DNA of 61,340 bases from a virus. Shown here one piece after another: positions 8,959-56,102 of this stretch (its first letter is position 1; every line of letters starts with the position of its first letter). A program made the translations under genes and the position numbers. The stretch spans positions 1 through 61,340 of the IMG/VR virus record IMGVR_UViG_3300028610_001469; one strand, 5' to 3'. Under the pieces are notes generated by a model, which was given only the letters and a program-made list of their open reading frames with translations, had not been told where the DNA came from and ran no database searches.

Positions 8959-9432
8959 TTGAAAAAATACATCTGGTCTTTTGATTTAAGTTTGTCTAAC
9001 ACTGGGTTTTGTATTTGGGATCTTGATGGAAATCCTCTTCATGTTTTTAGTGTAAAAACCACAGATAAGCAAAGTCATCCCAATAGATTGCGAACCATAG
9101 GGAATTTTATATTGGGTAAAAAAGAAGCATTCCCAACAGAACTTATAGTTATAGAATCTGGATTTACTAAATTCAATAAAAGTACACAGGCATTATTTAA
9201 AGTGTTGGGTGTTATACAATATTTGTTTTATGACTGCAAACAAATTTTTTATGCTTCCACTACAATAAAGAAGGCTGTTTGTGGGTATGGAAAAGCAACT
9301 AAGGATCAAGTGGCATATATAATATTGCAAGAATATCCTAATTTACAAATAAATAATGATGATGAAAGTGATGCCGTGGCTATAGGCGTGTGCCATTTTT
9401 TGGAGAATAGATATGCCCAAAAATGTTTATAA
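8959..9432 (+). CDS. RuvC-like Holliday junction resolvase
   Basis: 157 residues with the RNase H-fold pattern of RuvC: Asp9 in SFDLSLSNTGF, Glu66 in VIESGF, and the late pair Asp135/Asp138 in DDESDAVAIGVCH. The start is TTG at 8959 with GAGGAG 9-14 nt upstream. It would resolve branched phage DNA during recombination or before packaging. It overlaps the tyrosine recombinase gene by 20 nt. The location inside the tail module, just after a lysis gene, is unusual. Confidence 0.75.
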   Translation: MKKYIWSFDLSLSNTGFCIWDLDGNPLHVFSVKTTDKQSHPNRLRTIGNFILGKKEAFPTELIVIESGFTKFNKSTQALFKVLGVIQYLFYDCKQIFYASTTIKKAVCGYGKATKDQVAYIILQEYPNLQINNDDESDAVAIGVCHFLENRYAQKCL

Positions 9433-10396
9433 TGCGTTCTTCGATAAAGATATTTATGAAAAAGTTTGTACAGAAAATAAAACTTTGCTTGAAGATTACC
9501 TTTTAGAGCTAAAACAAAATCAAAAAAGCGAAGGAACTATTTATCAATATAAACGCGATATTATGGGGTTTTTTGTTTATGCATATAGAAAATTGGATAA
9601 TGCAAGTATTTTGACATTTACAAAAAAAGACTTTAGACGCTACTCATTGTATCTTCAAGATTTAGGATTATCTAATGCAAGACAGAACAGATTGCTTTCT
9701 TCTCTTAGATCAATGTTATCGTTTGCGGAAGATGAAGACGACTACGAATACGACATAAACATAGCCAAAAAAGTAAGGGGCTTGCCTAAACAGTCAGTCA
9801 GGGAAATATTTTATCTTACAGATAATCAAATTCTAAAAATACGAGATGTTCTTATGGAACGAAAAGAATACCAAAGAGCGACTCTTCTTATGTTGGCTTA
9901 TGATTCTTCTGGTAGAAAAAATGAATTGTCTCAGGTTGAAAAACATTCCTTTTATGATTCTAAAAAGAGTAGTACAAATAAAGTGATTGGAAAAAGAAAG
10001 AAAGTTTTTAGATTGCTTTATTTTTCTGGCACTAAAGAATGTGTTGTAAAATGGTTGGAACAACGCGGCGAAGACGATATAAATTCTTTGTGGTTCGTTA
10101 ATAGTGAACGACCAACATCTAATGTTCTTTATGATTGGACGATAGAAATGAGAGATATCTTATATGAGATTGATGGGGCAAACATTGATTTTAATCTTCA
10201 CTCTATGCGTCATGCTTGTCTTCAAAATCTTTCTGATGGTTCTCATTATGTTGCTAGAGAACTTGGTATAGATGGATTTCCTATTGAGAAGTTGAAATTA
10301 ATTGCTAATCACATTTCAATAGAGACGACCCAGAGTTACCTCAAAGATAATTCTATAGACGAATTAGAAAACATGTTCAATATCAAAATTGATTAA
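9413..10396 (+). CDS. tyrosine recombinase/integrase
   Basis: 327 residues. The N-terminal ~120 residues form a core-binding-type helical domain; the catalytic domain has Arg168 (SSGRKNEL), His263 and Arg266 (HSMRH), His300 (ANH) and nucleophile Tyr309 (TTQSYL), i.e. the full R-H-R-H-Y set. GGAG lies 8-11 nt before the ATG, inside the 3' end of the resolvase gene. The two genes read as a recombination pair. A second, distinct tyrosine recombinase is encoded at 37255-38133. Confidence 0.8.
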   Translation: MPKNVYNAFFDKDIYEKVCTENKTLLEDYLLELKQNQKSEGTIYQYKRDIMGFFVYAYRKLDNASILTFTKKDFRRYSLYLQDLGLSNARQNRLLSSLRSMLSFAEDEDDYEYDINIAKKVRGLPKQSVREIFYLTDNQILKIRDVLMERKEYQRATLLMLAYDSSGRKNELSQVEKHSFYDSKKSSTNKVIGKRKKVFRLLYFSGTKECVVKWLEQRGEDDINSLWFVNSERPTSNVLYDWTIEMRDILYEIDGANIDFNLHSMRHACLQNLSDGSHYVARELGIDGFPIEKLKLIANHISIETTQSYLKDNSIDELENMFNIKID

Positions 10397-10428: not shown

Positions 10429-13400
10429 ATGGCTGAGAAAGTAAGTGCTCCTGACAAATATCAGATTTTAGTAGAAGCGGTTCTTAAAACAACAACGGCT
10501 GGAAAAAGCAATGTTCAGACTGGATTAAATAAACTTTCTAAAGAATTAGAACTCACAATACATAAAGTTAAAATTAGTGGCAAAGGTCTTGCACATATTA
10601 AATCCCAATTGAAAAGCGCTTTATCTGATTTTGATGTTGATTTAGAAAAAATTGAAAAGGGGGGCGAAGCTGCTGGAAAAGCTCTTGGGATAAATGTTGG
10701 AAAAGGATACCAAAAAGCCGCTGCTGGAATTAATAAAATAGTAATTGAAAATGTTGATGATATTAGAAAATATTATGAGGGATTGGGCTGGCAAGAAATT
10801 TCTGCAAAAAAAATATTTGATGATGAAGAAACAAAAAAATATAATGTTACTCTTAAAAAGATAGTTGGGAATGAACAACAAATTCTAAGAACTAGAGTTG
10901 ATATTAATAAAAATGGTAAACATTATATTAAACTTTTGGATGAATCGTCAAGATATACAAAAAGTATTGCAGATCAAACTAAAACTTGGTCAACTAGACT
11001 TGAAGATATAAGAACTAGAAATGCTGATGTTGTTAAATCTAGTAGTGCAGTTAGAGATAAAATTAGAGAAATTGGAATCAGTATGCAAAAGTTTACTGGT
11101 GCAACTGCTGAAAGAGATAAAATAACTCAACAATTTAGAGAATTAAATTTAGAAGTTAATAAAACAAAAACAGCATTGGCCAGTGCTCACAAACAAGGCA
11201 TGACTTTTACATCAATGTTGAGTCTTGCACTCAAGAAAATTGTGCTTTGGGGAATCGGTACTGCTGTAGTTTATGGAACAATTAGACAAATACAGAAAGC
11301 AGTTGGATATGTAAAAGAATTAAATAAAGAGATGACTAATATCCAAATTGTTTCTGGTGCTTCTGTGCATGAAATAAAGAATCTCGCGCAAGAGTATAAC
11401 AATTTGGCTATTGCTCTTGGTGTAACAACTTTAGAAGTTACTAAGGGAAGTCTTGAATGGATACGACAAGGTAAGACAGCAAAAGAAACCGCTGAGTTGT
11501 TGCGTGCAAGCACTATGATGGCAACTTTAGGCAATCTTGATCAAGCAGAATCAACAGAATATTTAACATCCATTATTAATGGGTATGATTTAGCTTTAGA
11601 AGAAGTTATGCCCACCATTGATAAACTTATTGCTCTAGATAATGCTTACGCTACAAGTGTTGGTGAAATAGCTGCTGCTTTGCGTAGGGCCGCCAATTCG
11701 GCGCGTCTTATTCAAATTCCACTTGAAAATGTGGCAGCAATGATTACTGTTGTTTCTGCCGTGACTAGAAAAAGTGCGGAAAGTATTGGTGAAAGTTTTA
11801 AAACAATCTTTTCACGTATGAGAGATGTAAAACTCAATAAAGATATTGATGAAGCAGGGGAAAGTATATCTGATGTAGAAAAAATACTTGCTAGGTTTGG
11901 TATTGAACTTCGAGATAGTAGTCATCAATTTAGAAATATGAATGATGTTCTTGATGAAACAAGAGCAAAATGGTTAGAACTAGCTGAAGCAGGAAGGACT
12001 GTTGATCAATCTACGATTGCAAAAGCATTTGCTGGTGTTAGACAGGCTGAAAACTTTATTGCGTTAATGAACAATCAAGAAATGTACATTGAAGCTTTAA
12101 AAATTGAAGCAGAAGCACTAGGCACAACAGAAGAAAGATATGAAATTTATGTCAATAGTGTTGAAGCTGCTTCCAATCGCCTTATAGCCACTTGGGAAAA
12201 ATTAGTTGCAAATACTTTTACAGATGAATTATTGAAAAATGTTCTTGGTTTAGGCGAAGGTATAATAAAATTTGCAGATGCAGTGGGAATTCTTAATTTA
12301 GCTTTTGTTGCCCTTGGCATTTATTTAACAGCCAAATTTTCAATTATATTGCCATTTGTTGGACAGCAATTAGCTGGACTTTCAGCCGCCTTAAGCATTA
12401 CAACTGTAGCGGCTGAAGGATTAATGGTTGCGTTATCTGGAGTTGCAATAGTTTTGGGCATTATTGCCGTTATAGCCCTTGGTAAAATATATAGTAATTG
12501 GATAAATGGCGCTGAAATAGCCCGCGAAAAAACTATTGAGTTAAAAAATGAAATTGATTCTTTAACTCGTTCAATTAAAAAACTTGAAGAAGAGCGAAAT
12601 TCCGTTAGCTTATTGGCACAAGAATTTGTAGATTTACAACAAGATACTAAAAAATCAGCAGATGAGCAAGAAAGATACGTTGAGGTTCAAAATGAACTAA
12701 AAGATTTAATTCCTGGTCTTCAAGGATATTATAATGATCTTGGCAATTTTCGTATTACTGAAATTGCAGATTTAAAAACCATTATTGAACTGAGAAAAGA
12801 AGAATTAAGTTTAATAAAAGAGACGCTTAAAGAAAAAAAAATAGAGGGATTTGAAGCAGAATTAGAACTTTATGAGGAGCTTATAAAAAAACAAACTAGG
12901 CTTCAGGCCCTATCTGATATGGCTGAAATAAGAGTTGCAGATCCTTGGACAGGATTGCCAACAACTGATGTTAGTGCCGTTAATGCTGAAAAAGCCAGAA
13001 AAGATCTTAAGTCAGTAAGTGATGAAGTAGAGCTTTTTGTAAATAGAACTAAACAAGAATTTCTTTCTTTAGATGTTGCTACACAAAATCTTTTCTTAGA
13101 TATGGCTGAAAATTTGGGACGTTCTGATTTGGCTAATGAATTGCGTAAACTTGTGGGATCTTTTGATGTAATTGCCCAAAGAGCTATGCGTGCATTGCCA
13201 TTTAATCAACTTGGCGAATTTTTTGATGAATTAAATTTTGTTTTAAGTGAAACTTTAGATGAACTTATTGACTTCGATAAACAAATATTTTCCATTGTTG
13301 ATACTATGGAAGAATTTGGCAAAATTAGTGCAGAACAAGTAAAAATACTTGCTGGAATATTATCTCCTGCAGATTATGATGCTATAGTTTCTTGGGATGA

Positions 13401-14676
13401 ATTGAATAATGCCTACAAGATAAACATAGGGTTGCTGAAAAGCATATCTATAGCAAATGTTGATACCGCAATCACTATGGCATATATGGCAGATGCCAGC
13501 GATGAAGTGATAGAATCATTAAGGGGATATTTAGAACTTCTTGCCACTGGCGATCCATTTAAAAAATTTGGAGACAATCTCAAAGAAGTAGAACAAGCAG
13601 AAAAAGACTACCAAAAAGCCTTGGAAGACGCAGAAAAAGAACGAGAAAAAGCATATCAAGATCTCCTAAAAGCCACAATTTCAATGATCAAACAACGCAA
13701 AGAAGAAGAACGCGATGCTTTAAAAGATCAACTTGATGGATATAAAAAAATCATTGATGCTAGAAAACAAATCATTGATCAAGAAAAGAAAGAACGTGAT
13801 CATCTAAGGGCAGTTAAAGATCAACAAAAAGAAATTACAAACATTGAAGAAGAATTAATGGAACTTCAGTTTGATACCAGCGAAGAAGGAATGAAACGCA
13901 GGTTGGAGCTTGAAGAACAATTATTCGAAGAAAAGCGCGACCTTGAAGATGAAGAATATGATCATAGTGTTGATAAACAAAAGAGTGCCTTAGACGAAGA
14001 ATATGATAGGTTTAAGCACATTATTGATAAAAAACTTGATGTCATACAAGCATATTTACAACAATCTGGAACCATAGCCATGCAAGCCATTACCATGATT
14101 GAAAATAGAAGTGACACATTCTATCAATCATTATTGGAATGGAATAGAATTTATGGTAGTGGCATAGATAATGATATTGTGGGTGCTTGGAATAGGGCAT
14201 TTATGGCTGCAAGTCAATATGCAAGTGTTGTTGGGGCTCAACAAACACTCTCTGCACTTACTGGCACTGGATATACTGGGTCTTCATGGGGCGCAACGGA
14301 AATTGCAAGATTGCAAGCGTTGGGAATGGAATCTAGGGAATATCGCCAAGATCCTTCTATGATTAGAGGATATCATGAAGGTGGTTTTGTTGGCGGTCTT
14401 CCAAAGATAAGATCAAATGAAGAATATGCTAAATTAATGACGGGTGAATTCGTATCTAGACCAGATCAAATATCCAATTTTATGAATAAAACATTGCCAA
14501 ACATTGTTGCTAACACTGGCGGTGATGGCGAAATAACTATACATAATGAATTCAATGTTGCTGGAAACTTAGATAAGTCAGTTATTCCTATAATTGATAA
14601 CAAGATAGCGGAATCTCTCAATAGAATAATGAAAAATCGTGGAATTCGCCGTAACGCAAACGCATACAGTATTTAA
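10429..14676 (+). CDS. tail tape measure protein
   Basis: 1415 residues, the longest protein in the window and the ruler that sets tail length. Residues ~270-500 match the TP901-type tape-measure core (GYVKELNKEMTNIQIVSG... through VSAVTRKSAESIGESFKTIFSRM). Long coiled coils flank it (residues ~180-260 and ~1060-1200), and hydrophobic segments lie at ~620-690. The C-terminal ~130 residues have the EGGFV and FNVAGN patterns typical of these proteins. GGAGG precedes the ATG. At the common ratio of about 1.5 angstrom per residue the tail would be near 200 nm. Confidence 0.9.
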   Translation: MAEKVSAPDKYQILVEAVLKTTTAGKSNVQTGLNKLSKELELTIHKVKISGKGLAHIKSQLKSALSDFDVDLEKIEKGGEAAGKALGINVGKGYQKAAAGINKIVIENVDDIRKYYEGLGWQEISAKKIFDDEETKKYNVTLKKIVGNEQQILRTRVDINKNGKHYIKLLDESSRYTKSIADQTKTWSTRLEDIRTRNADVVKSSSAVRDKIREIGISMQKFTGATAERDKITQQFRELNLEVNKTKTALASAHKQGMTFTSMLSLALKKIVLWGIGTAVVYGTIRQIQKAVGYVKELNKEMTNIQIVSGASVHEIKNLAQEYNNLAIALGVTTLEVTKGSLEWIRQGKTAKETAELLRASTMMATLGNLDQAESTEYLTSIINGYDLALEEVMPTIDKLIALDNAYATSVGEIAAALRRAANSARLIQIPLENVAAMITVVSAVTRKSAESIGESFKTIFSRMRDVKLNKDIDEAGESISDVEKILARFGIELRDSSHQFRNMNDVLDETRAKWLELAEAGRTVDQSTIAKAFAGVRQAENFIALMNNQEMYIEALKIEAEALGTTEERYEIYVNSVEAASNRLIATWEKLVANTFTDELLKNVLGLGEGIIKFADAVGILNLAFVALGIYLTAKFSIILPFVGQQLAGLSAALSITTVAAEGLMVALSGVAIVLGIIAVIALGKIYSNWINGAEIAREKTIELKNEIDSLTRSIKKLEEERNSVSLLAQEFVDLQQDTKKSADEQERYVEVQNELKDLIPGLQGYYNDLGNFRITEIADLKTIIELRKEELSLIKETLKEKKIEGFEAELELYEELIKKQTRLQALSDMAEIRVADPWTGLPTTDVSAVNAEKARKDLKSVSDEVELFVNRTKQEFLSLDVATQNLFLDMAENLGRSDLANELRKLVGSFDVIAQRAMRALPFNQLGEFFDELNFVLSETLDELIDFDKQIFSIVDTMEEFGKISAEQVKILAGILSPADYDAIVSWDELNNAYKINIGLLKSISIANVDTAITMAYMADASDEVIESLRGYLELLATGDPFKKFGDNLKEVEQAEKDYQKALEDAEKEREKAYQDLLKATISMIKQRKEEERDALKDQLDGYKKIIDARKQIIDQEKKERDHLRAVKDQQKEITNIEEELMELQFDTSEEGMKRRLELEEQLFEEKRDLEDEEYDHSVDKQKSALDEEYDRFKHIIDKKLDVIQAYLQQSGTIAMQAITMIENRSDTFYQSLLEWNRIYGSGIDNDIVGAWNRAFMAASQYASVVGAQQTLSALTGTGYTGSSWGATEIARLQALGMESREYRQDPSMIRGYHEGGFVGGLPKIRSNEEYAKLMTGEFVSRPDQISNFMNKTLPNIVANTGGDGEITIHNEFNVAGNLDKSVIPIIDNKIAESLNRIMKNRGIRRNANAYSI

Positions 14677-14681
14677 CTCAG

Positions 14682-14700
14682 ATAAAAGGGGGATTTTATT
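14682..14700 (+). repeat. recurrent palindromic element at the tape measure 3' end
   Basis: ATAAAA, loop GGGGGA, TTTTATT, 5 nt after the tape-measure stop. The G-rich loop also forms the 5' half of the terminator-like hairpin that follows. In other copies a Shine-Dalgarno comes next; here the omega RNA and iscB come next instead. Confidence 0.6.
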
Positions 14701-14711
14701 TAATCCCCCTT
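14686..14711 (+). terminator. terminator-like hairpin between tape measure and IscB locus
   Basis: A 10-bp stem (14686-14695 with 14702-14711) with five consecutive G-C pairs and a 6-nt loop, followed only by a short T-containing stretch (TATTAAATC). It may attenuate rather than stop transcription. It would insulate the IscB locus from tail transcription. Confidence 0.5.
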
Positions 14712-14714
14712 ATT

Positions 14715-14984
14715 AAATCAGGAGGTAACCGTCAACTACCGCTCCTTTGTGGAGAGACTTATAAAAGTCCGCGTTGACCAGCCTAAGTTCTTTGAGAACT
14801 ACGTTATCAAGAAAGTTTAAGAACGTACGTTGGAATGACCGAGCCAGTTCCAACCACTACAACCAAAAAGTTAAACATGTTGAGGGTATAAACAAGTGCT
14901 TTTTGGAAACACTGATTGATAACATTGGCGAGGCTCACTTTACCCTCGAAAGAGGAGATTACAGTAAACCATAAAAGGTAAAAT
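14715..14984 (+). ncRNA. omega RNA (HEARO-type guide RNA) of IscB
   Basis: Non-coding stretch directly upstream of iscB with dense secondary structure. GTCAAC 14731-14736 pairs with GTTGAC 14773-14778 and encloses hairpins 742-745/751-754 and 756-760/765-769 (offsets from 14000). Then come AGTTC/GAACT hairpin 14786-14800, a 7-bp hairpin 14829-14835/14848-14854, and a long-range 7-bp stem 14882-14888/14941-14947. Multi-hairpin RNA ending at the nuclease start codon is the hallmark of IscB omega RNAs, where the guide lies 5' of the first stem. By that rule the guide would be about 14715-14730, which contains GGAGGT. The exact 5' end is inferred. Confidence 0.7.
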
Positions 14985-16265
14985 ATGCAAAGAGTATTTG
15001 TTTTAGATAGTAATAGAAAACCTCTTGTTCCTTGTCATCCGGCAAGGGCCAGACAGTTGATGAAGAATGGTAGAGCAAGTGTATTTCGTAAATATCCATT
15101 TACGATCATTTTGAATGACAGACTACAAGAAGAATCGACAATGTCTCCAATGAGAATCAAGATTGATCCTGGCAGCAGGACAACGGGAATAGCAATTGTA
15201 CAATTTGGGGGAAAAGTTTTGTGGGTGGCAGAAATAAATCATAGGGGGCAACAAATTAAGTTTGGTCTTGAAAGAAGACGAAATCGGCGTCGCAATAGAA
15301 GATCTAATTTAAGATATCGTCCTGAAAGATTTAATAATCGTAGTAGATCAAAAAAATGGTTGCCCCCAAGTTTGATGAGTAGGGTTCATAATGTTTTTAC
15401 TTGGACATTTCGTTTATGTCGATATGCTCCAATACAAGCAATTTCGATGGAATTAATTCGTTTTGATACCCAAAAAATGCAAAATCCAGAAATTTTAGGA
15501 GTTCAATATCAACAAGGTAAACTACAAGGGTATGAAGTAAGAGAATATTTGCTTGAAAAATGGGGAAGAAAATGTGCTTATTGTAACTCCAAGAATATTC
15601 CTTTAGAGATTGAACATATCATTCCTAGGGGCAGGGGAGGAAGCGATAGAGTGGATAATTTGACTATTGCTTGTCGATCCTGTAATCTTGCCAAGGGTAC
15701 ACAAACGGCAAAAGAATTTGGATTTTCTAAGATACAAATAAAAGCACGAAAATCTCTAAGAGATGCTGCAGTTATGAATGCTACTAGATGGAAATTGTGG
15801 CAAACATTGAATGAATTTAGTTTGCCTTTAGAAATTGGTACTGGGGGAAGAACAAAATATAATCGTTTTCTTCAAGGATTGCCTAAGACACATTGGATTG
15901 ATGCGATATGTGTTGGTAAAACTGGTGCACGCGTATATGTTCCTACAAAAATGACACCTTTAAGTATTAAAGCAAAGCGACATGGGAAAAGACAAATGTG
16001 CCTAATGAATAAGTATGGATTTCCAAGAACAAAAGCTAAAAAATCGTCAGTTGTTCACGGATTTAAGACAAATGATTTAGTTGTGGCAACAATACCTTTT
16101 GGAAAGAGATCGGGAACATATATCGGCAGGGTAGCGATTCGTTCAAGAGGATATTTTCGTGTTGGAAAAATTGATAGTATTCCTTATCAGCATTGTCAAA
16201 TTTTACAAATGAGTGATGGTTATGAATATGTGGAATCTAAACAATCATTATTGTCGTTAAAATAA
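14985..16265 (+). CDS. iscB: IscB RNA-guided nuclease (RRXRR/HNH)
   Basis: 426 residues, the usual IscB length. The N-terminal PLMP-type domain (residues 1-50) reads K-P-L-V-P. RuvC-I has Asp61 (KIDPGSRTTGIA), the Arg-rich bridge helix spans ~97-115, RuvC-II has Glu156 (SMELIRFD), the HNH insert spans ~190-240 with zinc cysteines C197/C200/C230/C233 and His211, and RuvC-III has His303 and Asp306 (HWIDAICVG). All catalytic residues are intact. AAAGG precedes the ATG. No TnpA transposase is nearby, so it is not an autonomous IS200/605-type element; a homing-like or exapted role in the phage is an inference. IscB proteins are ancestors of Cas9. Confidence 0.93.
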   Translation: MQRVFVLDSNRKPLVPCHPARARQLMKNGRASVFRKYPFTIILNDRLQEESTMSPMRIKIDPGSRTTGIAIVQFGGKVLWVAEINHRGQQIKFGLERRRNRRRNRRSNLRYRPERFNNRSRSKKWLPPSLMSRVHNVFTWTFRLCRYAPIQAISMELIRFDTQKMQNPEILGVQYQQGKLQGYEVREYLLEKWGRKCAYCNSKNIPLEIEHIIPRGRGGSDRVDNLTIACRSCNLAKGTQTAKEFGFSKIQIKARKSLRDAAVMNATRWKLWQTLNEFSLPLEIGTGGRTKYNRFLQGLPKTHWIDAICVGKTGARVYVPTKMTPLSIKAKRHGKRQMCLMNKYGFPRTKAKKSSVVHGFKTNDLVVATIPFGKRSGTYIGRVAIRSRGYFRVGKIDSIPYQHCQILQMSDGYEYVESKQSLLSLK

Positions 16266-16284
16266 AATTTGATTGGAGGGTTTT

Positions 16285-17076
16285 ATGGCATTTTTTGGAA
16301 GAAGATTTATTTGGGATGGAACTTCCAGTGATCTATATGGATTATATGTTACTAATTTTAAAACTGGTTTAGTAAAGTCTGATGCAGGATCGAATGTTAC
16401 ACCAATTAGAACATTACCCTATCGCAGATCAAAACAATATTTCTTTGGTGTTACACAAGATGAAATATTAGAAGTTGATTTGGAATTAACAAGTGCTGGT
16501 CGAGTTGATGGTCATATGAGAAGCCTTATGAAAAGGTGGTTATTTGGCAGTATTGTTGAAAAGAAGTTGCAAATTTTGCAATGCGATATTGATGAAGTTT
16601 ATTTTAACGGAATTTTGACCAACGTTAAAGATATATATGTGGGCAACATTCATCAAGGATTTTCTTGTACGATGAGTTGTGATTCACCCTGGGGTTGGAC
16701 GTTTCCAAAAACAATAACAAGACCATATGGTGGAGGAATTGCAAACGATACGTTTACATTCTATAATGATACTGATGATGCGGATTATCTTTATCCAGCC
16801 ATAACATTTACTTTAAATGCAATTGGAGATTCTTTTGGTTTGGTAAATACTACGGATGATAGTAGGGCTTTTACCTTTACTGATATATCTGCGTTAGAGG
16901 TAATGACCGTAGACAATAGTAGACAAATAGTAAGTTCAAGTACAGGATTAAACAGGCTTGGAAAATTTAATAAAAATTGGCTTAGATTATTGCCAGGGAA
17001 TAATAGTCTTACACTCACAGGAGGGGTAAGCGAGTTTACTATGACTTACCAGTTTGCAAGAAAAATTGGAGGGTAA
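16285..17076 (+). CDS. distal tail protein (Dit)
   Basis: 263 residues from the ATG at 16285 (GGAGGG 5-10 nt upstream; a GAGGG-embedded start at 16273 is rejected). The N-terminus (FFGRRFIWDGTSSDLYGLYVTNF) and the following beta-rich domain fit the Dit hub that joins tail tube to tail tip, with a C-terminal galectin-like domain. The gene sits between tape measure and tail-tip genes as in other siphophages, now separated from the tape measure by the IscB locus. Confidence 0.7.
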   Translation: MAFFGRRFIWDGTSSDLYGLYVTNFKTGLVKSDAGSNVTPIRTLPYRRSKQYFFGVTQDEILEVDLELTSAGRVDGHMRSLMKRWLFGSIVEKKLQILQCDIDEVYFNGILTNVKDIYVGNIHQGFSCTMSCDSPWGWTFPKTITRPYGGGIANDTFTFYNDTDDADYLYPAITFTLNAIGDSFGLVNTTDDSRAFTFTDISALEVMTVDNSRQIVSSSTGLNRLGKFNKNWLRLLPGNNSLTLTGGVSEFTMTYQFARKIGG

Positions 17077-17078: not shown

Positions 17079-20000
17079 ATGCAACAAAACTTTGACTTTT
17101 ATGATCAGTTTGAGCAACCTCAAATAACTTTGCTAAATCCTGATAGAACTGAGCTATATTCTTTGGGAACCATTGAAGGCGGACAGCTTGAATGGCGATA
17201 TAATGCGCTATCTCGTTTTCGTTTTACGGCCTACAAGACTATTGATGAAGTAGACAATGAATATTATGATTTTTTACAACATAGAAGATTGATATCCGTA
17301 GAGAATATAGGATATTTTATAATAACTGATATTACTGAAGGTAGTGATGGAATTACTGAATTTAAGGAAATAGTTGTTGATTCTCAAGAAGCAGAATTTA
17401 TCAATAAAAAGGTTACTGTTTTTAGTGGTACATTTGAATTTTATGATCCTATAACTCCTGCTGGAACATTGGTTGGCACTCTTTTAGCATATGTACCTGG
17501 ATGGTCTGTAGGCACTATTGATGCAGATCTATGGGGTTTGTACAGGTCGTTTGATGTATCTGATACAACACTTTATGAATTCATGATGACAGAAGTTTCT
17601 CAAGCATATCAGGCAGTATTTTATTTTGATACAATTAATAAAACAGTAAATGCAAGATATGTTCCTGATACTCCTACAGCAACAGATATATTTTTATCTT
17701 TTGATAATCTTATTGAAAAAACAGAGATTAAGGAAATAACATCTGAATTAGTTACTGCACTTACAGTTTATGGTGGTGGTGACTTAGATATTTTAACTGT
17801 TAATCCTTTAGGCACGAATACCATTTATAATTTTGAACATTTTGAAACAACAGATTGGATGAGTCAAGGATTAATAGATGCTCTTGATACTTGGGAAGCA
17901 TTGATTGTATCCAATCAGATAACTTATGCCAATAAGCTTACACAATTAAAAGATGAAAATGAGAATTTACGTGCGTTGGAATCTGAATTGGCAGACCTTA
18001 CAGCAGAACTTGTGGCTTTACAAGGTGTTCAAGGAGCTAGAATTCAACAGGGCTTAGATATTTCAAGTATAGCCTCACAAGTTTCTTCGAAAGAGGCTGA
18101 AATAGTTTCTAAAAATTCAGAAATTACTACTTCTGAAGGATTAATTGCGGGATATATTGTAGACTTAACGGCAATTAATACAACTTTAAGTTTTGATTCA
18201 AATTTTAATGATGCTCAATTATTGGAACTGAATCCACTTATTATAGGTTCAACATATCAGAACCCTAACTTTATTCAAACAGACATTATGACAAATGCCG
18301 AGATACAAGACATGTCACAAAACTTATATGACCAAGCAATTATAGTTTTAAATAAAATTGCGGTTCCAAGATATGAATTCAATATAAGTGCTGTAAACTT
18401 TATTTTCTTAAAAGAGTATGAAGAATTTATCAGTCAAGTTACATTGGGATCAACCATAACTTTAGAACTTACTGATGGCACATACATTTCTCCTGTGTTA
18501 TTGGGAATAGATTTAGATTATGATGATCCTAAGAATTTTCAAATGATTTTTGGAAATAAGTTTAGATTGGGAAGTAGTTCATATGAATTTTCTGATTTAT
18601 TTGGAGACAGCTCTAATTCTTCTATAAAAACAAGTTTTAATTCAGAACAATGGGGAAACTGGTCAACAAGTCATAAATCTGAAGTAACCACTTTTATTGA
18701 TAGTGCTCTAAACGCATCTTTAAATAAACTTATAAGTTCTACAAACGAAGAAATCACAATAAGTGAAATTGGTTTAAGGGCTAGAACGTATCGTCCTACC
18801 ACAGACGATTATGATCCCAAGCAATTATGGTTAACAAGTAATACGCTTGCATTTAGTAGGGATGGTTTTCAAACAGCCAGTTTAGCGTTAGGTCAAATTG
18901 CTGGCCCTAGTGGTTCTGCTTTTGGTCTAGTTGGAGAAGTAATTGTTGGGCATATTATTGCAGGAAATGAATTAACAATTCAAAATGAAAATAATACATT
19001 TGTTGTGGATGGGGCTGGTGCAAGGTTAACTAATGCTACATTTACTCTTACGGCAAATGCGAACAGAAATAAAATTCTTTTAGATCCACAGAATGGAATA
19101 AAAATTCAAAAATTAATTGGATCTTCTTATGTTGATCAATTTTATGTAGATAGTTCTGGAAATGTAATTTTCAAAGGAAATTTATCTGCGGCTACGGGAG
19201 ATTTTACAGGTACTATTGCTGCCGCCTCTGGTAATATTGGTGGTTGGCAAATCAAGCCAACTGGACTATTTGATTCTCGCGGAAACTATATTAAAAGTAC
19301 TGGAGATATTCGACTTGGAAAGTTATCCATACATGGCCGCACAGCAATTTTTAGTGGTGATATTTATGCTGATAATTTGCAAGGATTCATCATGGGGCCG
19401 CAGATTGGGTTGAATCAAATAATACCAGAACATATTGATTATTTAGATGCAACTAAAATTACTGCTGGCGAGATGTTGGCGGATAGAATTTTTGGTGGAA
19501 CTATCAGATGGCCTGGAGCTCAATTGGGAGTGTCAAAATCTGGATATCCAGAACTTGTGGCGCAGAGCAACATTTCTTTAAGAGTGCTTGATGCTAATGG
19601 TCTTCCAAAAATAACATTATCTCGATTGGGATTGGTAGTAAGAGGAAATGCTAAGTTTATCAATGATGTTTCTTTTGGTGGAGCGATCATTGCTGATTCA
19701 TTTTATCCAGAAACGACAAAGGGTAAAACAAAAGATGTTAAACTTGGTGAAAGAATACTCAATTTTAAAAAAGGTATCTTGATTGGTCTTAATTTTGATA
19801 ATGTTGACGATCCTTCGCCAGAACAAGCCCCACTAGTAAGTTATGCAGGAAAAGACATTCCAAATTCAGACTTCACGGATCCTGGTATTTTTAATGGCGC
19901 AATTTTTGCTGGAGCCAATGTGCGATATAGCGATTTTGAAGACGCTTCTCTATATGGGGTAAATTTTTCTGTAGTTGATGCTAGGGACACCAACTTTGAT

Positions 20001-20411
20001 GGTGCTTATTTTGGTGGAGCAAATCTTGCGGTCAGCAATTTTAGTGACGCAAATTTTTTTAATACGTCTTTTAATGGTGGTGATCTTAGTCATGCACGTT
20101 TTGATGATACGAATATAGGAGCGATGGATTGTTGGGGAGTTACCATGTTGGAAGTTCATATTGATGACTGTATAGGAAACCCAACGGCATTTACATCTTG
20201 TACGATGAATGGAGCATTTTTTAGAGATGTAGATTTATCAGGGACTACTTTTGATGGTAGCAATTTATCTGATGGCGATATTCGTACTTGCAATATTGCC
20301 GGTGCATCGTTTAGAGATTGCAATTTAACAGGGGTTAACTTTACTGGATCAACTGGTTCAGGAACGGCAAATTTTACAAATGCTCTTATGACTGGCGTTA
20401 TTGGTTTATAA
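17079..20411 (+). CDS. tail-associated tip protein (Tal-like) with C-terminal pentapeptide repeats
   Basis: 1110 residues. Residues 1-~430 resemble the hub domain of Tal / prophage endopeptidase tail proteins; a coiled coil lies near 290-360. The central part (~640-790) has the glycine-rich beta repeats found in tail-tip extensions (SGNVIFKGNLSAATGDFTGTI). From about residue 915 to the end the sequence is a pentapeptide-repeat array (A(N/D)(L/F)xx pattern, e.g. FAGANVRYSDFEDASLYGVNF), which folds as a square beta-helix. GGAGG precedes the ATG. The pentapeptide domain probably forms a spike or sugar-binding tip. Confidence 0.75.
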   Translation: MQQNFDFYDQFEQPQITLLNPDRTELYSLGTIEGGQLEWRYNALSRFRFTAYKTIDEVDNEYYDFLQHRRLISVENIGYFIITDITEGSDGITEFKEIVVDSQEAEFINKKVTVFSGTFEFYDPITPAGTLVGTLLAYVPGWSVGTIDADLWGLYRSFDVSDTTLYEFMMTEVSQAYQAVFYFDTINKTVNARYVPDTPTATDIFLSFDNLIEKTEIKEITSELVTALTVYGGGDLDILTVNPLGTNTIYNFEHFETTDWMSQGLIDALDTWEALIVSNQITYANKLTQLKDENENLRALESELADLTAELVALQGVQGARIQQGLDISSIASQVSSKEAEIVSKNSEITTSEGLIAGYIVDLTAINTTLSFDSNFNDAQLLELNPLIIGSTYQNPNFIQTDIMTNAEIQDMSQNLYDQAIIVLNKIAVPRYEFNISAVNFIFLKEYEEFISQVTLGSTITLELTDGTYISPVLLGIDLDYDDPKNFQMIFGNKFRLGSSSYEFSDLFGDSSNSSIKTSFNSEQWGNWSTSHKSEVTTFIDSALNASLNKLISSTNEEITISEIGLRARTYRPTTDDYDPKQLWLTSNTLAFSRDGFQTASLALGQIAGPSGSAFGLVGEVIVGHIIAGNELTIQNENNTFVVDGAGARLTNATFTLTANANRNKILLDPQNGIKIQKLIGSSYVDQFYVDSSGNVIFKGNLSAATGDFTGTIAAASGNIGGWQIKPTGLFDSRGNYIKSTGDIRLGKLSIHGRTAIFSGDIYADNLQGFIMGPQIGLNQIIPEHIDYLDATKITAGEMLADRIFGGTIRWPGAQLGVSKSGYPELVAQSNISLRVLDANGLPKITLSRLGLVVRGNAKFINDVSFGGAIIADSFYPETTKGKTKDVKLGERILNFKKGILIGLNFDNVDDPSPEQAPLVSYAGKDIPNSDFTDPGIFNGAIFAGANVRYSDFEDASLYGVNFSVVDARDTNFDGAYFGGANLAVSNFSDANFFNTSFNGGDLSHARFDDTNIGAMDCWGVTMLEVHIDDCIGNPTAFTSCTMNGAFFRDVDLSGTTFDGSNLSDGDIRTCNIAGASFRDCNLTGVNFTGSTGSGTANFTNALMTGVIGL

Positions 20412-25227: not shown

Positions 25228-25590
25228 TTAGTATCCTAATTCTTCCAAGATTTTTCTTTCTTTTTTGAGATCTCTATTAAGAGCGTGTTGTTCTGTAAAT
25301 TTATCAGGATATCTAGATTTCAATTTATCTATGTTGTTTTGAAGGATGTTTTCTAGGTCAAAATTGTTTATATTGCAAAAATTTATTAAATAAAACATCG
25401 CGTCTCCAATTTCTTCTTGAACATTTATCCAATCTATTTTTTTACCATATGCCATGTTAGTTTTAAAAATATTGGCTAATTCTGCAACTTCTGTGACCAT
25501 GCCCAACACCATATGTAAATTATCCATTTTTTTGGATGGAAGTTTGGCGTTTGTACGTTTTGCTTCTTGAGCGTATTTTTTGAGATTCAT
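25228..25590 (-). CDS. MazG-like nucleotide pyrophosphohydrolase
   Basis: 120 residues. TEVAELANIFK and EEIGDAMFYLINFC give the E-x-x-E and E-x-x-D metal-binding set of the MazG / all-alpha NTP pyrophosphohydrolase fold. It would hydrolyse (d)NTPs to monophosphates or degrade an alarmone. Its ATG overlaps the nrdJ stop (ATGA), a natural coupling with nucleotide reduction. A second MazG-like protein is at 27585. Confidence 0.75.
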   Translation of the reverse strand: MNLKKYAQEAKRTNAKLPSKKMDNLHMVLGMVTEVAELANIFKTNMAYGKKIDWINVQEEIGDAMFYLINFCNINNFDLENILQNNIDKLKSRYPDKFTEQHALNRDLKKERKILEELGY

Positions 25591-27260
25591 TTAATAGTTT
25601 TAACCTTCAACATACATTCCGTACATTCCTTATTTCCATTAAGGGATATCAATTCTTTGTTGCAAGTGGGGCATTTATCTCTTTTGATATTTTTTGGGGA
25701 AAGCACTTCATTTTTACGAGAACCATTTCTATACATAGCCACCCCTTTACAACCTTCTTTCCATGCTATCATTATTGCTTTACGCATTGTTTTTTTATGA
25801 GTTTTGGTAGGGAAATTAATTGTTTTACTAATGCTCGAATCTATATGCTTTTGTCCCGCAGCCAATATTGCAATGTGCTCTTGCCAAGTTACTTCGTTTG
25901 ACTCATTTGAGGAAACAGCGCATCTGAAGTATGGTTCCGATGAGAGATTATTGCTAAAAGTATAGACCCCTGTCTTGTCATTTCTTATGGTAATCTCGCT
26001 AAAAATGGGTTCTAAGCCACTGGAGCATCCAGCAATTAAACTAACTGTCCCAGTGGGAGGTGCGGTTAATACCGTAATATTTCTTCTGGGGGTTGGCAAC
26101 TTTTTACACATTTTAGGAACACCCAATTCATACCCCATTATCTCTGATTCTTTATACGCTTCTCTTTTCATAAAAGATAAAATATTTTCAAGTTCGCCAA
26201 TTGATTCTTTAGATCCATATGCGATTTCTTTCATCAGGCAATAGTCTGCAAATCCCATTATTCCCAACCCTACACTTCTATTTTCTTGAGCCCACTTTTC
26301 TATTGAAGGAGTGGGGTAGGAAGATTTGCTAATTGTAGAATCTAAAAATCTTATTCCTAATTTTACTGCAATACCTAATTTTTCATAATTCATTTCTTGA
26401 GATGATACAAATTTAGACAAATCAAGAGAACCAAGTGTGCAGATTCCATTTATGGGCAATGGTAATTCTGAACACACGTTGACACAAAATATTTCTTGAC
26501 CTGTGTGTTTATATGGAGAATCATTTATGCGATCCATGAAGAGAATTCCTGGTTCACCGTTTTTCCATGCGCCTTCAACAATCAACCTAAAAACATCTCT
26601 TGCCTTATATTTGTCATATTTTTTACCATCAAATTCTGTCCAATAATCCTCATTGTTGTCAACGGCATTCATAAACTCATCGTCTACCATAACAGATATA
26701 TTCGCATTGGTAAGTTTCCCTTCTTCTGATTTAGAAACTATAAACTTTATTATATCTGGATGCGAAACTTTTTGTGCGAACATAATCGCCATTTCGCGAA
26801 ACCCTGCCCCTTGCGAGAGGACAGTCATGTCGTGAGATATTGTATTGGCAAATTTTATTCCTCCTCCTGCGTATCCATGAGTACTTCCCGCAACTGGATC
26901 TCCTTCTGGGCGAAGCTTGGCTAAGGACGTTCCACATCCCCCTCCTTTTCTTGCAATCAATGCAAAATCAAGTTTAGTTTTATATATACCCCTAATATCA
27001 TCTGGAAAATCAACTACAAAACAGGCACTTAATCCAGCGTCTTTTTTTCCAGCATTTACTAAACAAGGAGAATTGGGAATGAAATATCTATTTTTTATCA
27101 TTTGTCTTGTTAATTCTTTATCTTTCTTTTTAAACTCAGGAATCACATTGTCCACAACTCTATCAACAAGTTGGTTCCATGTTGTTTCCCCCTCCATAAA
27201 ATATCTTTTCTTCAAGATATTCATTGCTGTCTTACTAATTTTTCTCTTTGGTGTGAACAT
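25587..27260 (-). CDS. nrdJ: class II (adenosylcobalamin-dependent) ribonucleotide reductase
   Basis: 557 residues, a compact class II enzyme. PNSPCLVNAG (62-71), GGGCGTS (107-112) and the active-site N-V-C-S-E (Asn261, Cys263, Glu265) are present, and APPTGTVS matches the phosphate-binding loop. The C-terminus has a CPTC...CTEC zinc-type segment typical of class II enzymes. It makes deoxynucleotides independently of oxygen, using vitamin B12. GGAG lies 14-17 nt before the ATG. Confidence 0.9.
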   Translation of the reverse strand: MFTPKRKISKTAMNILKKRYFMEGETTWNQLVDRVVDNVIPEFKKKDKELTRQMIKNRYFIPNSPCLVNAGKKDAGLSACFVVDFPDDIRGIYKTKLDFALIARKGGGCGTSLAKLRPEGDPVAGSTHGYAGGGIKFANTISHDMTVLSQGAGFREMAIMFAQKVSHPDIIKFIVSKSEEGKLTNANISVMVDDEFMNAVDNNEDYWTEFDGKKYDKYKARDVFRLIVEGAWKNGEPGILFMDRINDSPYKHTGQEIFCVNVCSELPLPINGICTLGSLDLSKFVSSQEMNYEKLGIAVKLGIRFLDSTISKSSYPTPSIEKWAQENRSVGLGIMGFADYCLMKEIAYGSKESIGELENILSFMKREAYKESEIMGYELGVPKMCKKLPTPRRNITVLTAPPTGTVSLIAGCSSGLEPIFSEITIRNDKTGVYTFSNNLSSEPYFRCAVSSNESNEVTWQEHIAILAAGQKHIDSSISKTINFPTKTHKKTMRKAIMIAWKEGCKGVAMYRNGSRKNEVLSPKNIKRDKCPTCNKELISLNGNKECTECMLKVKTIK

Positions 27261-42657: not shown

Positions 42658-42662
42658 TTGAG

Positions 42663-42735
42663 TAGCAGAGATGGGATTTGAACCCATATTATGCCAACTT
42701 ATGGGGCTGGTGTGTTACCTATACACTACTCTGCG
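42663..42735 (-). tRNA. tRNA-Met (CAT)
   Basis: Anticodon loop CCCATAA on a CCAGC/GTTGG stem. Position 33 is C instead of U, and position 1-72 is a C-U mismatch, which recalls initiators; a tRNA-Ile2 (lysidine) identity is also possible. No CCA. Confidence 0.75.
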
Positions 42736-42739
42736 ATAA

Positions 42740-42812
42740 AGCCGAAAGCAGGGATCGAACCCGCGGCATCCTTCTTACAAGGAAGGCACTCTACCAACTG
42801 AGTTATTCCGGC
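42740..42812 (-). tRNA. tRNA-Thr (TGT)
   Basis: Anticodon loop CTTGTAA on a CCTTC/GAAGG stem; acceptor GCCGGAA/TTTCGGC. Confidence 0.88.
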
Positions 42813-42813
42813 A

Positions 42814-42888
42814 TGCTCTTGGAAGGATTTGAACCTACAACTCACTGCATATAAGACAGGCACTCTAACCAGATTGAGTTACAAGAGC
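42814..42888 (-). tRNA. tRNA-Ile (TAT)
   Basis: Acceptor GCTCTTG/CAAGAGC; loop CTTATAT reads TAT, decoding the rare ATA codon that AT-rich phages use heavily. Confidence 0.8.
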
Positions 42889-42891
42889 TTA

Positions 42892-42962
42892 TGGACAATG
42901 AGAGGATCAAACTCTCGCCTCATCCTTGCAAGGGATGCGTACTCTCGCTATACTAATCGCCC
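42892..42962 (-). tRNA. tRNA-Ala (TGC), atypical elbow
   Basis: Loop CTTGCAA on CATCC/GGATG. The acceptor has G3-U70, the alanine identity pair. The D-loop is only 7 nt and lacks the usual GG, and T-loop position 56 is T instead of C, so the canonical D-loop/T-loop G19-C56 contact is missing on both sides. Confidence 0.75.
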
Positions 42963-42966
42963 AAGG

Positions 42967-43038
42967 TGGATGTGGAGAGATTTGAACTCCCGACTTCTCC
43001 CTTATCAGAGGAGCGTTCTACCACTGAACTACACATCC
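42967..43038 (-). tRNA. tRNA-Ile (GAT)
   Basis: Loop CTGATAA; acceptor GGATGTG/CACATCC. Confidence 0.9.
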
Positions 43039-43041
43039 CTA

Positions 43042-43116
43042 TGCACCTAGCTGGACTTGAACCAGCGGATCTCATCTTTGTAAAAGATGTGTTTTCACCA
43101 ACTAAACTATAGGTGC
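43042..43116 (-). tRNA. tRNA-Val (TAC)
   Basis: Loop TTTACAA on CATCT/AGATG; acceptor GCACCTA/TAGGTGC. Confidence 0.9.
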
Positions 43117-43120
43117 ATGG

Positions 43121-43197
43121 CGCATCCGGTGAGATTTGAACTCACGACCTTCTGTTCTTCAAACAGACGCTTAACTACCAGACTGAGCTACAGATGC
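43121..43197 (-). tRNA. tRNA-Phe (GAA)
   Basis: Loop TTGAAGA on TCTGT/ACAGA; acceptor GCATCTG/CGGATGC with one wobble pair. Confidence 0.88.
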
Positions 43198-43217
43198 ATA
43201 AATTTTTAAGGTTCTAA

Positions 43218-43299
43218 TGCTGATGGTAGGGCTCGAACCTACACGCTCGAAAGCACCAGATTTTAAGTCTGGGTTGTCTGCCAATTCCAACACACCAGC
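43218..43299 (-). tRNA. tRNA-Leu (TAA)
   Basis: Loop CTTAAAA on CCAGA/TCTGG, with the long variable arm of class II tRNAs; acceptor GCTGGTG/CATCAGC. Confidence 0.88.
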
Positions 43300-43320
43300 C
43301 TATGTTGTAGTCCAGGTCGC

Positions 43321-43443
43321 TCAGTTTAGTTGGTAATACCTGCATTTACCATCAGGACGGTTGCTGTAAATCTTCAACTTTTTTAACTCGTTGAGCAATT
43401 GCCAACTTACGCCAATTTTACGAACTGCCCTCGATGCTACAAC
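43321..43443 (-). pseudogene. possible winged-helix protein remnant inside the tRNA array
   Basis: One frame encodes ~40 residues ending in VSWQLLNELKKLKIYSNRPDGKCRYYQLN, closely like the recognition helix and wing of ArsR-type winged-helix regulators (LLxxLkkLglv..rrdGK.ryY.L). There is no start codon or Shine-Dalgarno; the upstream part is tRNA-Leu sequence. An 8-bp inverted repeat (43303-43310 with 43437-43444) flanks the piece. It may be a relic of an inserted gene or part of a structured RNA. Confidence 0.3.
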
Positions 43444-43445
43444 AA

Positions 43446-43528
43446 TACTGAAGATAGGAGTCGAACCTACACACCCAAAGGGTACTTCCGTTTGAAGAAA
43501 GCGCGTCTGCCAATTTCGCCACTTCAGC
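43446..43528 (-). tRNA. tRNA-Leu (CAA)
   Basis: Loop TTCAAAC on CTTTC/GGAAG; long variable arm; acceptor GCTGAAG/CTTCAGT. Confidence 0.85.
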
Positions 43529-43532
43529 ATAA

Positions 43533-43615
43533 TACTGGAGAGAGGGGTCGAACCTCTACGCCCTGCGGCACGTAGTTCTAAGCCACGCATGTCTGCCAAA
43601 TTTCATCACTCCAGC
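43533..43615 (-). tRNA. tRNA-Leu (TAG)
   Basis: Loop CTTAGAA on CGTGG/CTACG; long variable arm; acceptor GCTGGAG/CTCCAGT. It is the first tRNA transcribed from promoter 43693-43721. Confidence 0.88.
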
Positions 43616-43620
43616 AAATA

Positions 43621-47943: not shown

Positions 47944-48230
47944 TTTTTATCTTCCTCATAATAATCACAATTCTTAACAAAAGAAGTTACATTGCGGTTG
48001 CGTTTGAAAGCCTTGTTTAAAAACTCGCAGGTGTTATCAACATATCTACATGAACGTCTTCCACTGGGATCTTCCCTATAAACTATTTCATGGGCGCAAG
48101 ATATACAAGCCCTAGTTGCTGGATTGCGATCACAGGTCTTTTCATGTTTCAAAATAACTTTCACATCAAAAGAACCAGCTTTTCTACAACCATAAAATTG
48201 ACAGAGATAGAATATTTTTTCTTTAGGCAC
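47940..48230 (-). CDS. Cys-rich protein with several zinc-type pairs
   Basis: 96 residues, eight cysteines including C-x4-C, C-x2-C and C-x6-C spacings. It starts where the IMP dehydrogenase gene ends. Function unknown. Confidence 0.5.
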   Translation of the reverse strand: MPKEKIFYLCQFYGCRKAGSFDVKVILKHEKTCDRNPATRACISCAHEIVYREDPSGRRSCRYVDNTCEFLNKAFKRNRNVTSFVKNCDYYEEDKK

Positions 48231-49645
48231 TATATCTCTCCTGCCGTATGAGAATTGCTTTCCCTGAATCCAGCACTGGTAATCTCTATAAATTCAGCCT
48301 TAGTAAGTTCTGGCACATTATACGCATTGCAATAACTCATTCCAGATTTCAAACCTCCAAGCAACTGATAAATTATATCATTCACAATTCCTTTATATGG
48401 TATGAAAGATTCTACTCCTTCTGGTACGATGGTATTAAGTGCTCCCTTATCTGTCCTATCAGCGTTTGCCAAAAAAGAAGCTGAACCCCTATGGGCCTTA
48501 TACTTTTTATTCTTTCTCGTAATTACTTCGCCAGGACTTTCAGTGGTTCCAGCAAATAATCCTCCCAACATTACTGTAGAGGCTCCTGCGGCTAAAGCTT
48601 TAGTTATATCGCCAGAATATCTTATACCCCCATCAGCAATTATGTGCTTATTCAATCTTGTAGCAGCCTTTGAACATTTCATAACTGCTGTTAACTGAGG
48701 CACTCCTACACCAGCCACAATTCTTGTCGTACAGGAAGCCCCAGGGCCAATTCCAACTTTTACTGTGTCTGCTCCCGCGTCTAATAAATCATTTACTCCA
48801 CTGGCTGTAGCAACATTTCCACCAACAATATCCACATGTGGAAATTTTGTTCTAATCTGTCTTATTGTTTTCAGAACAATTTCATTATGACCATGTGCCA
48901 CATCCACTACAATTGCATCAGCGCCAGCTTCTACAATGGCCTCTACTCTTGCCATATAGTCGCCAATTACACCAACAGATGCACCAACTTTGTATCTTTC
49001 ATGTTCATCAACAGTAGAATTAGGATATTTTTCAGAATTCTCTAAAGACTTTGCCGTAATAAGTTTTATAAATTTATAATACATTTGCCTTTCACTTATT
49101 ATGGGTAATTTTTCAACTTTATGCATTTTGAAAAATTCTTTTGCCTCATCTTTGGTTGGAATGTCCGTCAAATAAAAAATGTTTGACATTGGTGTCATTA
49201 GTTCAAGCGCAGTCTTAGACAAATCTGTTTCATAAACATAATCTCTTTTAGAAACAATACCCAAAAAACTATTTTGTGTGTCTACAACAACAAATCCCGT
49301 CTTATCAGAATAGCTAATTAATTCCTTCATTTCTGCAAGAGTAACTAAAGGCAAAATCTTTTGTGGATCCTCAATCGTATGTCCAGCATAATTTTTCACT
49401 CTTTTAATATGCCAGACCTCTTCTTCAATAGACATAAACCTGTGAATAAATCCAATGCCACCAGTCTGAGCCATAGCAATAGCCATGTTTGACTCTGTTA
49501 CAGTTGCCATATTTGCAGAAATCAATGGTATATTCAAAACTATTTTTTCTGTAAGATTTGTAGCCAGGGATACATTAGATCTACTATCAATAAATGATCG
49601 TTTAGGAACTAGAAGCACATCGTCAAATGTCAAACCTTTTATCAT
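48230..49645 (-). CDS. guaB: IMP dehydrogenase
   Basis: 471 residues, full length. [14 protein letters not shown] opens the TIM barrel, a CBS pair fills residues ~90-205, AHGHNEIV and GGNVAT lie near 250-280, and [11 protein letters not shown] carries catalytic Cys305. The flap has GTTESPGEV and ADRTDKGA near 420. It converts IMP to XMP, the rate-limiting step to guanine nucleotides. Gene order in the operon: purA-like gene upstream, Cys-rich small gene downstream. It is an uncommon phage gene. Confidence 0.92.
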
Positions 49646-55365: not shown

Positions 55366-55378
55366 AGTTTTCTCCTTG

Positions 55379-55452
55379 AAGCAGGTAAAAGATTCGAACT
55401 TTTTACTAGTGGTTCAAAGCCACTTATGTTAAGCCAATTACACCAACCTGCC
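55379..55452 (-). tRNA. tRNA-Gln (TTG)
   Basis: Loop CTTTGAA on AGTGG/CCACT; T arm AAAAG/CTTTT; acceptor GGCAGGT/ACCTGCT. Confidence 0.8.
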
Positions 55453-55456
55453 ACAA

Positions 55457-55528: not shown

Positions 55529-55556
55529 ATTTTATCAACACTATATTGTTACTAAA

Positions 55557-55911: not shown

Positions 55912-55918
55912 ATATCTG

Positions 55919-56005: not shown

Positions 56006-56006
56006 A

Positions 56007-56093: not shown

Positions 56094-56102
56094 AATAAAT
56101 TG

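What the first reader, a model, noticed from the sequence alone, without database searches (positions are those of the whole stretch)
14682..16265. IscB with its omega RNA inserted in a phage tail operon
Seen: complete IscB (RuvC-I/II/III and HNH catalytic residues intact) preceded by ~270 nt of strongly structured non-coding RNA, set between the tape measure stop and the distal tail gene. No TnpA is present. By the known IscB rule the guide is the DNA just 5' of the first stem, here about 14715-14730, which contains the ribosome-binding motif GGAGGT. Inference: the guide may match the tape measure-dit junction of related phages, making an RNA-guided homing element or a weapon against competitor phages.
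Basis: partly seen in the sequence, partly recalled or inferred. Interest (0 to 1): 0.85.

Follow-up and report, generated by a model that had tools for sequence, protein, structure and literature searches.

The report
Phage-borne IscB element with guide RNA
A virus of bacteria carries a complete copy of IscB, a small RNA-guided DNA-cutting enzyme related to the ancestor of Cas9, inserted exactly between the ribosome-binding site and the start codon of a tail gene; it has lost the DNA end used for ordinary jumping and sits where related viruses carry selfish 'homing' genes, so it probably survives and spreads by cutting copies of the virus that lack it.

Summary
At 14715-16284 lies a full IscB/HEARO (OMEGA) element: guide 14715-14730, omega RNA 14731-14943 (Rfam RF02033, 131 bits, full length), intact IscB 14985-16265. 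Comparison with about 105 other elements and with element-free junctions of related phages gives its exact edges: it split the Shine-Dalgarno (SD) sequence AGGAGGTAACC (now the guide) from the start codon ATGGCA (predicted TAM) of the distal tail gene. This is a general habit, not a peculiarity: the guide region holds an SD motif in 32/105 elements (3-8/105 in upstream control windows) and the right flank is often a start codon RTGR. In the window, the right-end hairpin of transposing relatives is gone and an SD just inside the element now serves the tail gene. No TnpA is in the record. The same junction holds GIY-YIG homing endonuclease genes in two related phages. Best explanation: a nuclease-competent, TnpA-less IscB that behaves as an RNA-guided homing element. 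Homing is inferred: no known relative carries a well-matched target (best 11/16). The 'weapon' idea has no specific support. New member of a known kind, in an informative setting.

The parts
10429..14676 (+). tail tape measure gene, left neighbour
   Evidence: PHROG tape measure E=1e-80
14688..14709 (+). ancestral hairpin between tape measure and Dit genes (GGGGGAT...ATCCCCC); part of the flank, not of the element
   Evidence: a hairpin at the same place is visible in most element-free relatives
14715..14730 (+). omega RNA guide AAATCAGGAGGTAACC = left flank; contains the original SD of the Dit gene (AGGAGGT, 14720-14726)
   Evidence: lies directly 5' of HEARO position 1; left edge |GTCA set by multi-copy Desulfobacter elements
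14731..14943 (+). omega RNA scaffold (HEARO), left end of the element
   Evidence: Rfam RF02033, 131.1 bits, model 1-211/211
14973..14978 (+). probable SD of iscB (AAAAGG)
   Evidence: sequence, 6 nt before the ATG
14985..16265 (+). iscB, 426 aa, RuvC and HNH residues intact
   Evidence: Pfam RRXRR and HNH, alignment A2, PDB IscB matches
16266..16284 (+). right end of the element: no right-end hairpin; carries SD GGAGGG (16275-16280), then TTTT
   Evidence: no match to the right-end profile at E<=10; edge ...TTTT|ATGR as in Desulfobacter copies
16285..16290 (+). predicted TAM ATGGCA, which is also the start codon of the Dit gene
   Evidence: fits NWRRNA/NWRGNA (NWRGNA and NWRRN strings from PMC13180657; NWRRNA for OgeuIscB from memory) and the RTGR right flanks of relatives
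16285..17076 (+). distal tail (Dit) gene, right neighbour, reading frame intact
   Evidence: Pfam DUF6558_C/DUF6558; alignment of six Dit sequences

Best explanation
This is a nuclease-competent IscB/HEARO element that entered a tail operon exactly between the SD and the start codon of the distal tail gene and now behaves as an RNA-guided homing (selfish retention) element. SHOWN: full omega RNA, intact IscB, exact edges by comparison, an element-free ancestral arrangement in related phages, no right-end hairpin, no TnpA in the record, no TAM next to the guide in its own locus, and no other well-matched site in the record. INFERRED: the omega RNA is processed from the tail-operon transcript; IscB uses guide AAATCAGGAGGTAACC to cut the rejoined junction AAATCAGGAGGTAACC|ATGGCA on genomes lacking the element (sister copies after loss, or co-infecting kin); recombinational repair from the element-bearing copy restores the insert. 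Insertion at a start codon keeps both tail genes intact, and an SD just inside the right end (GGAGGGTTTT|ATG) replaces the displaced one, so the insert is nearly silent.
For: HEARO 131 bits, full length; catalytic residues intact; IscB of solved structures as nearest PDB relatives. Element-free junctions: about 13 of 16 non-redundant related Dit loci read directly from tape measure stop through SD to ATG, e.g. L007/L019 CGCAGGAGGTGATCT|ATGGCATTTT. Edges: ten Desulfobacter latus copies diverge exactly at |GTCAAC and after TTTT|ATGA, and congeners hold the element-free site TTTAGGAATATAA|ATGAAAAACGCAG-like. SD in guide: 32/105 against 3-8/105 in five upstream windows and 4/105 on the opposite strand; 22/56 where a >=60-codon ORF starts RTGR at the right edge. 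Right-end hairpin not found even at E<=10, while found in 39/72 bacterial and 18/71 viral elements. No TnpA. Self-scan: only its own locus matches 16/16, and it is followed by GTCAAC, not a TAM. The same junction carries GIY-YIG homing endonuclease genes in L034 and L008, and a third phage has one after Dit. Phage IscBs are polymorphic among near-identical phages: Silviavirus and Baoshanvirus, Nodularia phages.
Against: No relative with a well-matched empty target is known (best 11/16, mismatches next to the TAM), so homing in this lineage is not observed. Only one phage carries the element at this junction. No promoter above chance near the omega RNA, so expression would depend on the late tail operon. 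Right-end hairpins are also undetected in many bacterial elements (33/72), partly because the profile is imperfect, so loss is not unique. The record may be incomplete, so a TnpA elsewhere is not excluded.
Confidence: 0.6

Rival explanations
1. A stranded insertion: an ISC element placed here by a TnpA acting in trans (for instance from a host copy), now immobile and drifting, with intact IscB only because it is recent. No homing takes place.
For: Edges, TAM and start-codon preference are those of multi-copy bacterial elements that evidently transpose; the nearest IscB is bacterial, 61% identical in Chloroflexota; right-end hairpin missing.
Against: IscB ORF and a 213-nt omega RNA are both fully preserved although the nearest relative is only about 61% identical; the displaced SD has a functional-looking replacement; the junction is shared with homing endonucleases.
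Confidence: 0.25
2. A weapon in phage-phage competition: IscB destroys co-infecting related phages that carry the uninterrupted junction, giving exclusion rather than conversion.
For: The same nuclease and guide would do it; protein homing endonucleases can exclude kin (established for T-even and SPO1-like phages; general knowledge, not tested here).
Against: No known phage carries the perfect target; the guide is set by the insertion site and is not chosen against a rival; a late-operon position is a poor fit for early exclusion.
Confidence: 0.1
3. A domesticated regulator: IscB-omega RNA binds SD/start-codon sites and tunes tail gene expression without cutting.
For: Guide and TAM are an SD and a start codon; nuclease-dead TnpB regulators are known (from memory).
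Against: All RuvC and HNH catalytic residues are intact; no second well-matched site in the phage.
Confidence: 0.04
4. The reader's 'RBS in the guide' marks a special adaptation of this phage element.
For: SD lies in the guide.
Against: The same holds for about 30% of elements in phages and bacterial chromosomes alike (13/46 viral, 19/59 genomic) and follows from an RTGR TAM that reads start codons.
Confidence: 0.01

Closest known systems
IscB-omega RNA (HEARO; ISC elements of the IS200/IS605 superfamily), e.g. OgeuIscB, KraIscB
   Same: RRXRR-RuvC-HNH protein, 5' HEARO omega RNA with the guide taken from the left flank, TAM in the right flank
   Different: in a phage tail operon; no TnpA in the record; right-end hairpin missing; SD just inside the right end
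Viral HEARO systems (Aliaga Goltsman et al. 2022, PMC9755519) and HEARO RNA in Silviavirus phages (PMC13346280)
   Same: HEARO nuclease with its RNA in phage genomes; over 16% of HEARO-bearing fragments there were viral or prophage-like
   Different: the passages read do not resolve insertion site, target or hotspot; here they are resolved to the base
Free-standing phage homing endonucleases (GIY-YIG, HNH)
   Same: same tape measure-Dit junction in related phages (L008, L034); neutral intergenic insertion; self-target destroyed by insertion
   Different: specificity comes from an RNA copied from the flank, not from a protein recognition domain
TnpB-driven retention and gene drive of IS200/IS605 (PMC11870625)
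   Same: guide records the insertion site, and element-free copies are cut
   Different: IscB (HNH + RuvC, TAM 3' of target) rather than TnpB; phage genome rather than plasmid; no transposase

Membership tests
IscB / HEARO (OMEGA) nuclease | RRXRR/bridge region plus split RuvC with inserted HNH | tested here: met
   Pfam RRXRR and HNH; PDB IscB hits
IscB / HEARO (OMEGA) nuclease | intact RuvC and HNH catalytic residues | tested here: met
   D61, E156, H211, N234, H303, D306 in alignment A2
IscB / HEARO (OMEGA) nuclease | HEARO omega RNA directly upstream of the ORF | tested here: met
   RF02033, 131 bits, 14731-14943
IscB / HEARO (OMEGA) nuclease | guide equals left flank; TAM in right flank | tested here: met
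   edges from multi-copy elements and element-free sites; ATGGCA fits NWRRNA
IscB / HEARO (OMEGA) nuclease | RNA-guided DNA cleavage | not testable with these tools
   needs biochemistry
Autonomous ISC / IS200-IS605 transposon | TnpA (Y1) in the element | tested here: not met
   PF01797 absent from the record
Autonomous ISC / IS200-IS605 transposon | right-end hairpin | tested here: not met
   no profile hit at E<=10; 39/72 bacterial elements have it
Homing element | insertion destroys its own target site | tested here: met
   guide is followed by GTCAAC, no TAM; no other good site in the record
Homing element | element-free alleles with matching target in close kin | tested here: inconclusive
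   element-free junctions exist, but the best match is 11/16
Homing element | super-Mendelian transfer to element-free genomes | not testable with these tools
   needs phage crosses
Homing element | occupies a homing endonuclease hotspot | tested here: met
   GIY-YIG genes at the same junction in L008 and L034

The most novel reading that the evidence does not exclude
Phages harbour a class of TnpA-less, right-end-less IscB elements that live as true RNA-guided homing endonucleases: they use a translation start site as homing site (SD as guide, start codon as TAM), can restore an SD from their own right end, and compete for the same neutral niches as GIY-YIG homing genes.
Probability: 0.4. Interest if true: 0.75.

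Novelty: new member of a known kind. Interest (0 to 1): 0.5.

Why it matters
Most IscB elements lack a transposase, and how they persist is open. This case gives an exact, testable target (AAATCAGGAGGTAACC|ATGGCA), a lost transposition end and a homing-gene hotspot, so 'RNA-guided homing in phages' can be tested directly. The general rule behind it (IscB TAM = start codon, guide = SD region, in about a third of elements) explains why these insertions are harmless and gives a simple way to delimit elements and predict their native targets.

Tried and rejected
Near-identical phages: none in the phage collection or in scans for Dit, DNA polymerase and tape measure; the collections may omit very near records. 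Exact search for the empty site AGGAGGTAACCATGGCNTT: four hits, all SD+ATG of unrelated genes. Exact empty site of the L043 element: none. Nodularia kac68v162 as a model of the standard insertion was rejected: its omega RNA 5' part is not recognisable and its edges differ. A general 'portable SD at the right end' was tested: 9/56 elements against 6/56 and 1/56 in windows further in, so not a general trait; it holds for the window and a few others. 'The guide's SD is an adaptation of this phage' was rejected by the same rate in bacterial elements. Free-energy z-score alone (-2.4) is weak support for the RNA; the Rfam match is what counts. The tmRNA hit at 39709-39835 was not reproduced. Weinberg 2009 and Altae-Tran 2021 are not held, so what they say on insertion motifs is from memory.

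Full report
OBSERVATION. The window is a 61,340-bp virus record with no near match in the annotated phage collection. Between the tape measure gene (10429-14676; PHROG E=1e-80) and the distal tail gene (ATG at 16285; DUF6558/SPP1_Dit) lies a complete IscB ORF, 14985-16265 (RRXRR E=1e-68, HNH), with RuvC residues D61, E156, H303, D306 and HNH residues H211, N234 kept; solved IscB structures are its nearest PDB relatives. The RNA upstream is Rfam HEARO/omega RNA at 14731-14943, 131.1 bits, full length. No Y1 transposase is in the record.

EXACT EDGES. Ten copies of a related element in Desulfobacter latus differ in their flanks exactly before GTCAAC on the left and after ...CATTTT, with ATGA next, on the right. 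Joining the flanks of one copy gives a query that matches other genomes of the genus across the junction, the best at 85-91% identity; the element-free site there reads TTTAGGAATAT-AA|ATGAAAAACGCAG. The same rule places the window element at 14731-16284, right flank ATGGCA. Related phages show what was there before: in about 13 of 16 non-redundant Dit loci the order is tape measure stop, usually a hairpin, SD, ATG, for example L007/L019 CGCAGGAGGTGATCT|ATGGCATTTT. In the window the hairpin and AGGAGGTAACC lie left of the element and ATGGCA lies right of it. The element thus sits between the SD and the start codon of the Dit gene, and the guide 14715-14730 is AAATCAGGAGGTAACC. ATGGCA fits the IscB TAM strings NWRRNA/NWRGNA (NWRRNA itself from memory).

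A GENERAL HABIT. In 105 non-redundant elements with a resolved left edge, an SD motif lies at -16..-4 of the omega RNA in 32, against 3-8 in five upstream windows and 4 on the opposite strand; viral (13/46) and bacterial (19/59) elements agree. In 56 elements an ORF of 60 codons or more starts with RTGR at the right edge, and 22 of these have an SD in the guide. Some elements are copies from one genome, but their insertion sites are separate events. So the RBS in the guide follows from a TAM that reads start codons and from the harmlessness of such sites. I recall that the original HEARO description noted ATGA/GTGA sites; the paper is not held.

WHAT IS SPECIAL HERE. (1) The right-end hairpin (TTCCTCCCC...GGGGTTTCC), found in 39/72 bacterial and 18/71 viral elements, gives no hit in the window even at E<=10; the profile misses some hairpins, so the class counts are rough. 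(2) The 19 nt after the iscB stop carry GGAGGGTTTT right before the Dit ATG, which can replace the displaced SD; this is not a general trait (9/56). (3) The tape measure-Dit junction is a homing-gene hotspot: L034 has a GIY-YIG/NUMOD3 gene there, L008 a homing endonuclease (PHROG E=2e-29, weak Pfam GIY-YIG), and L015 a GIY-YIG gene after Dit. (4) In the record only the element's own locus matches the guide fully; it is followed by GTCAAC and so lacks a TAM, and the next best site is 12/16.

ORIGIN. In a tree of 157 IscBs the window protein lies among mixed bacterial and viral rows; its nearest by path is a Chloroflexota protein, 61% identical; the labels need 21 changes on the tree, at least 8 forced by well-supported branches. 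IscB has therefore crossed between phages and bacteria repeatedly.

MOBILITY OF PHAGE ISCBs. Phages that are nearly identical differ by such inserts: Silviavirus L199/L202 (IscB) against L204/L205 (none; flanks 97-99% identical in dozens of records), Baoshanvirus L203 and L201 (two different sites) against L206-L208, and Nodularia kac68v162 against kac68v161 and kac65v151. These belong to other IscB branches or have unusual edges and only support the point that phage IscBs come and go quickly.

MECHANISM. Most likely the element is a selfish, nuclease-competent insert that cuts element-free copies of its own junction and is copied in by repair. Shown: parts, edges, self-immunity by loss of the TAM, hotspot, lost right end. 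Inferred: expression, cleavage, homing. Main gap: no relative with a well-matched target. The best is 11/16, with mismatches next to the TAM; an exact scan for AGGAGGTAACC+ATGGCNTT found four unrelated genes. The available relatives are distant (Dit 39-48% identical), so this is absence of data rather than evidence against. The weapon reading needs the same nuclease but has no separate support.

VERDICT. An authentic IscB-omega RNA element, a new member of a known kind, with an unusually clear anatomy for testing RNA-guided homing in phages.

Noticed in passing
L034 2943-3959; L008 13815-14573; L015 16403-17167: GIY-YIG homing endonuclease genes at or next to the tape measure-Dit junction of related phages: a recurrent insertion hotspot.
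   Followed up: yes
window 14688-14709 and most of L019-L038 upstream of Dit: A G+C-rich hairpin sits at the tape measure-Dit junction in most relatives just before the SD; sequence varies, position is kept. Possibly an attenuator or processing site.
   Followed up: no
L199 2641-4300 against L204 2441-2560: In Silviavirus the IscB insert lies just inside the start of a RusA resolvase gene; its right end carries a synonymous recoding of the first codons (TNS: ACAAATTCG for ACAAATAGT), rebuilding the gene while destroying the original target.
   Followed up: partly
L018 2780-4302 against L213, L214: In Nodularia phage kac68v162 an IscB element is inserted in the TnpB gene of an IS607 element; near-identical phages lack it.
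   Followed up: partly
L136-L158: Desulfobacter latus carries at least ten near-identical IscB elements, most before start codons; a good model for native TAM and guide.
   Followed up: partly
window 8959-10396: A RuvC-like resolvase gene and a tyrosine recombinase gene lie directly upstream of the tape measure gene, an odd place for them.
   Followed up: no
window 42662-43616 and 55378-57646: 17 tRNA genes in two clusters on the minus strand; the phage also encodes a ribonucleotide reductase large subunit (25587-27260) and an IMP dehydrogenase (48230-49645).
   Followed up: no
window 39709-39835 (-): Rfam tmRNA match of 54 bits squeezed into 127 nt; not reproduced by a local scan or by ARAGORN. 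Probably spurious or highly reduced.
   Followed up: partly
window 17079-20411: Tail protein after Dit ends in a pentapeptide-repeat domain; the relatives L007 and L012 show different C-termini.
   Followed up: no
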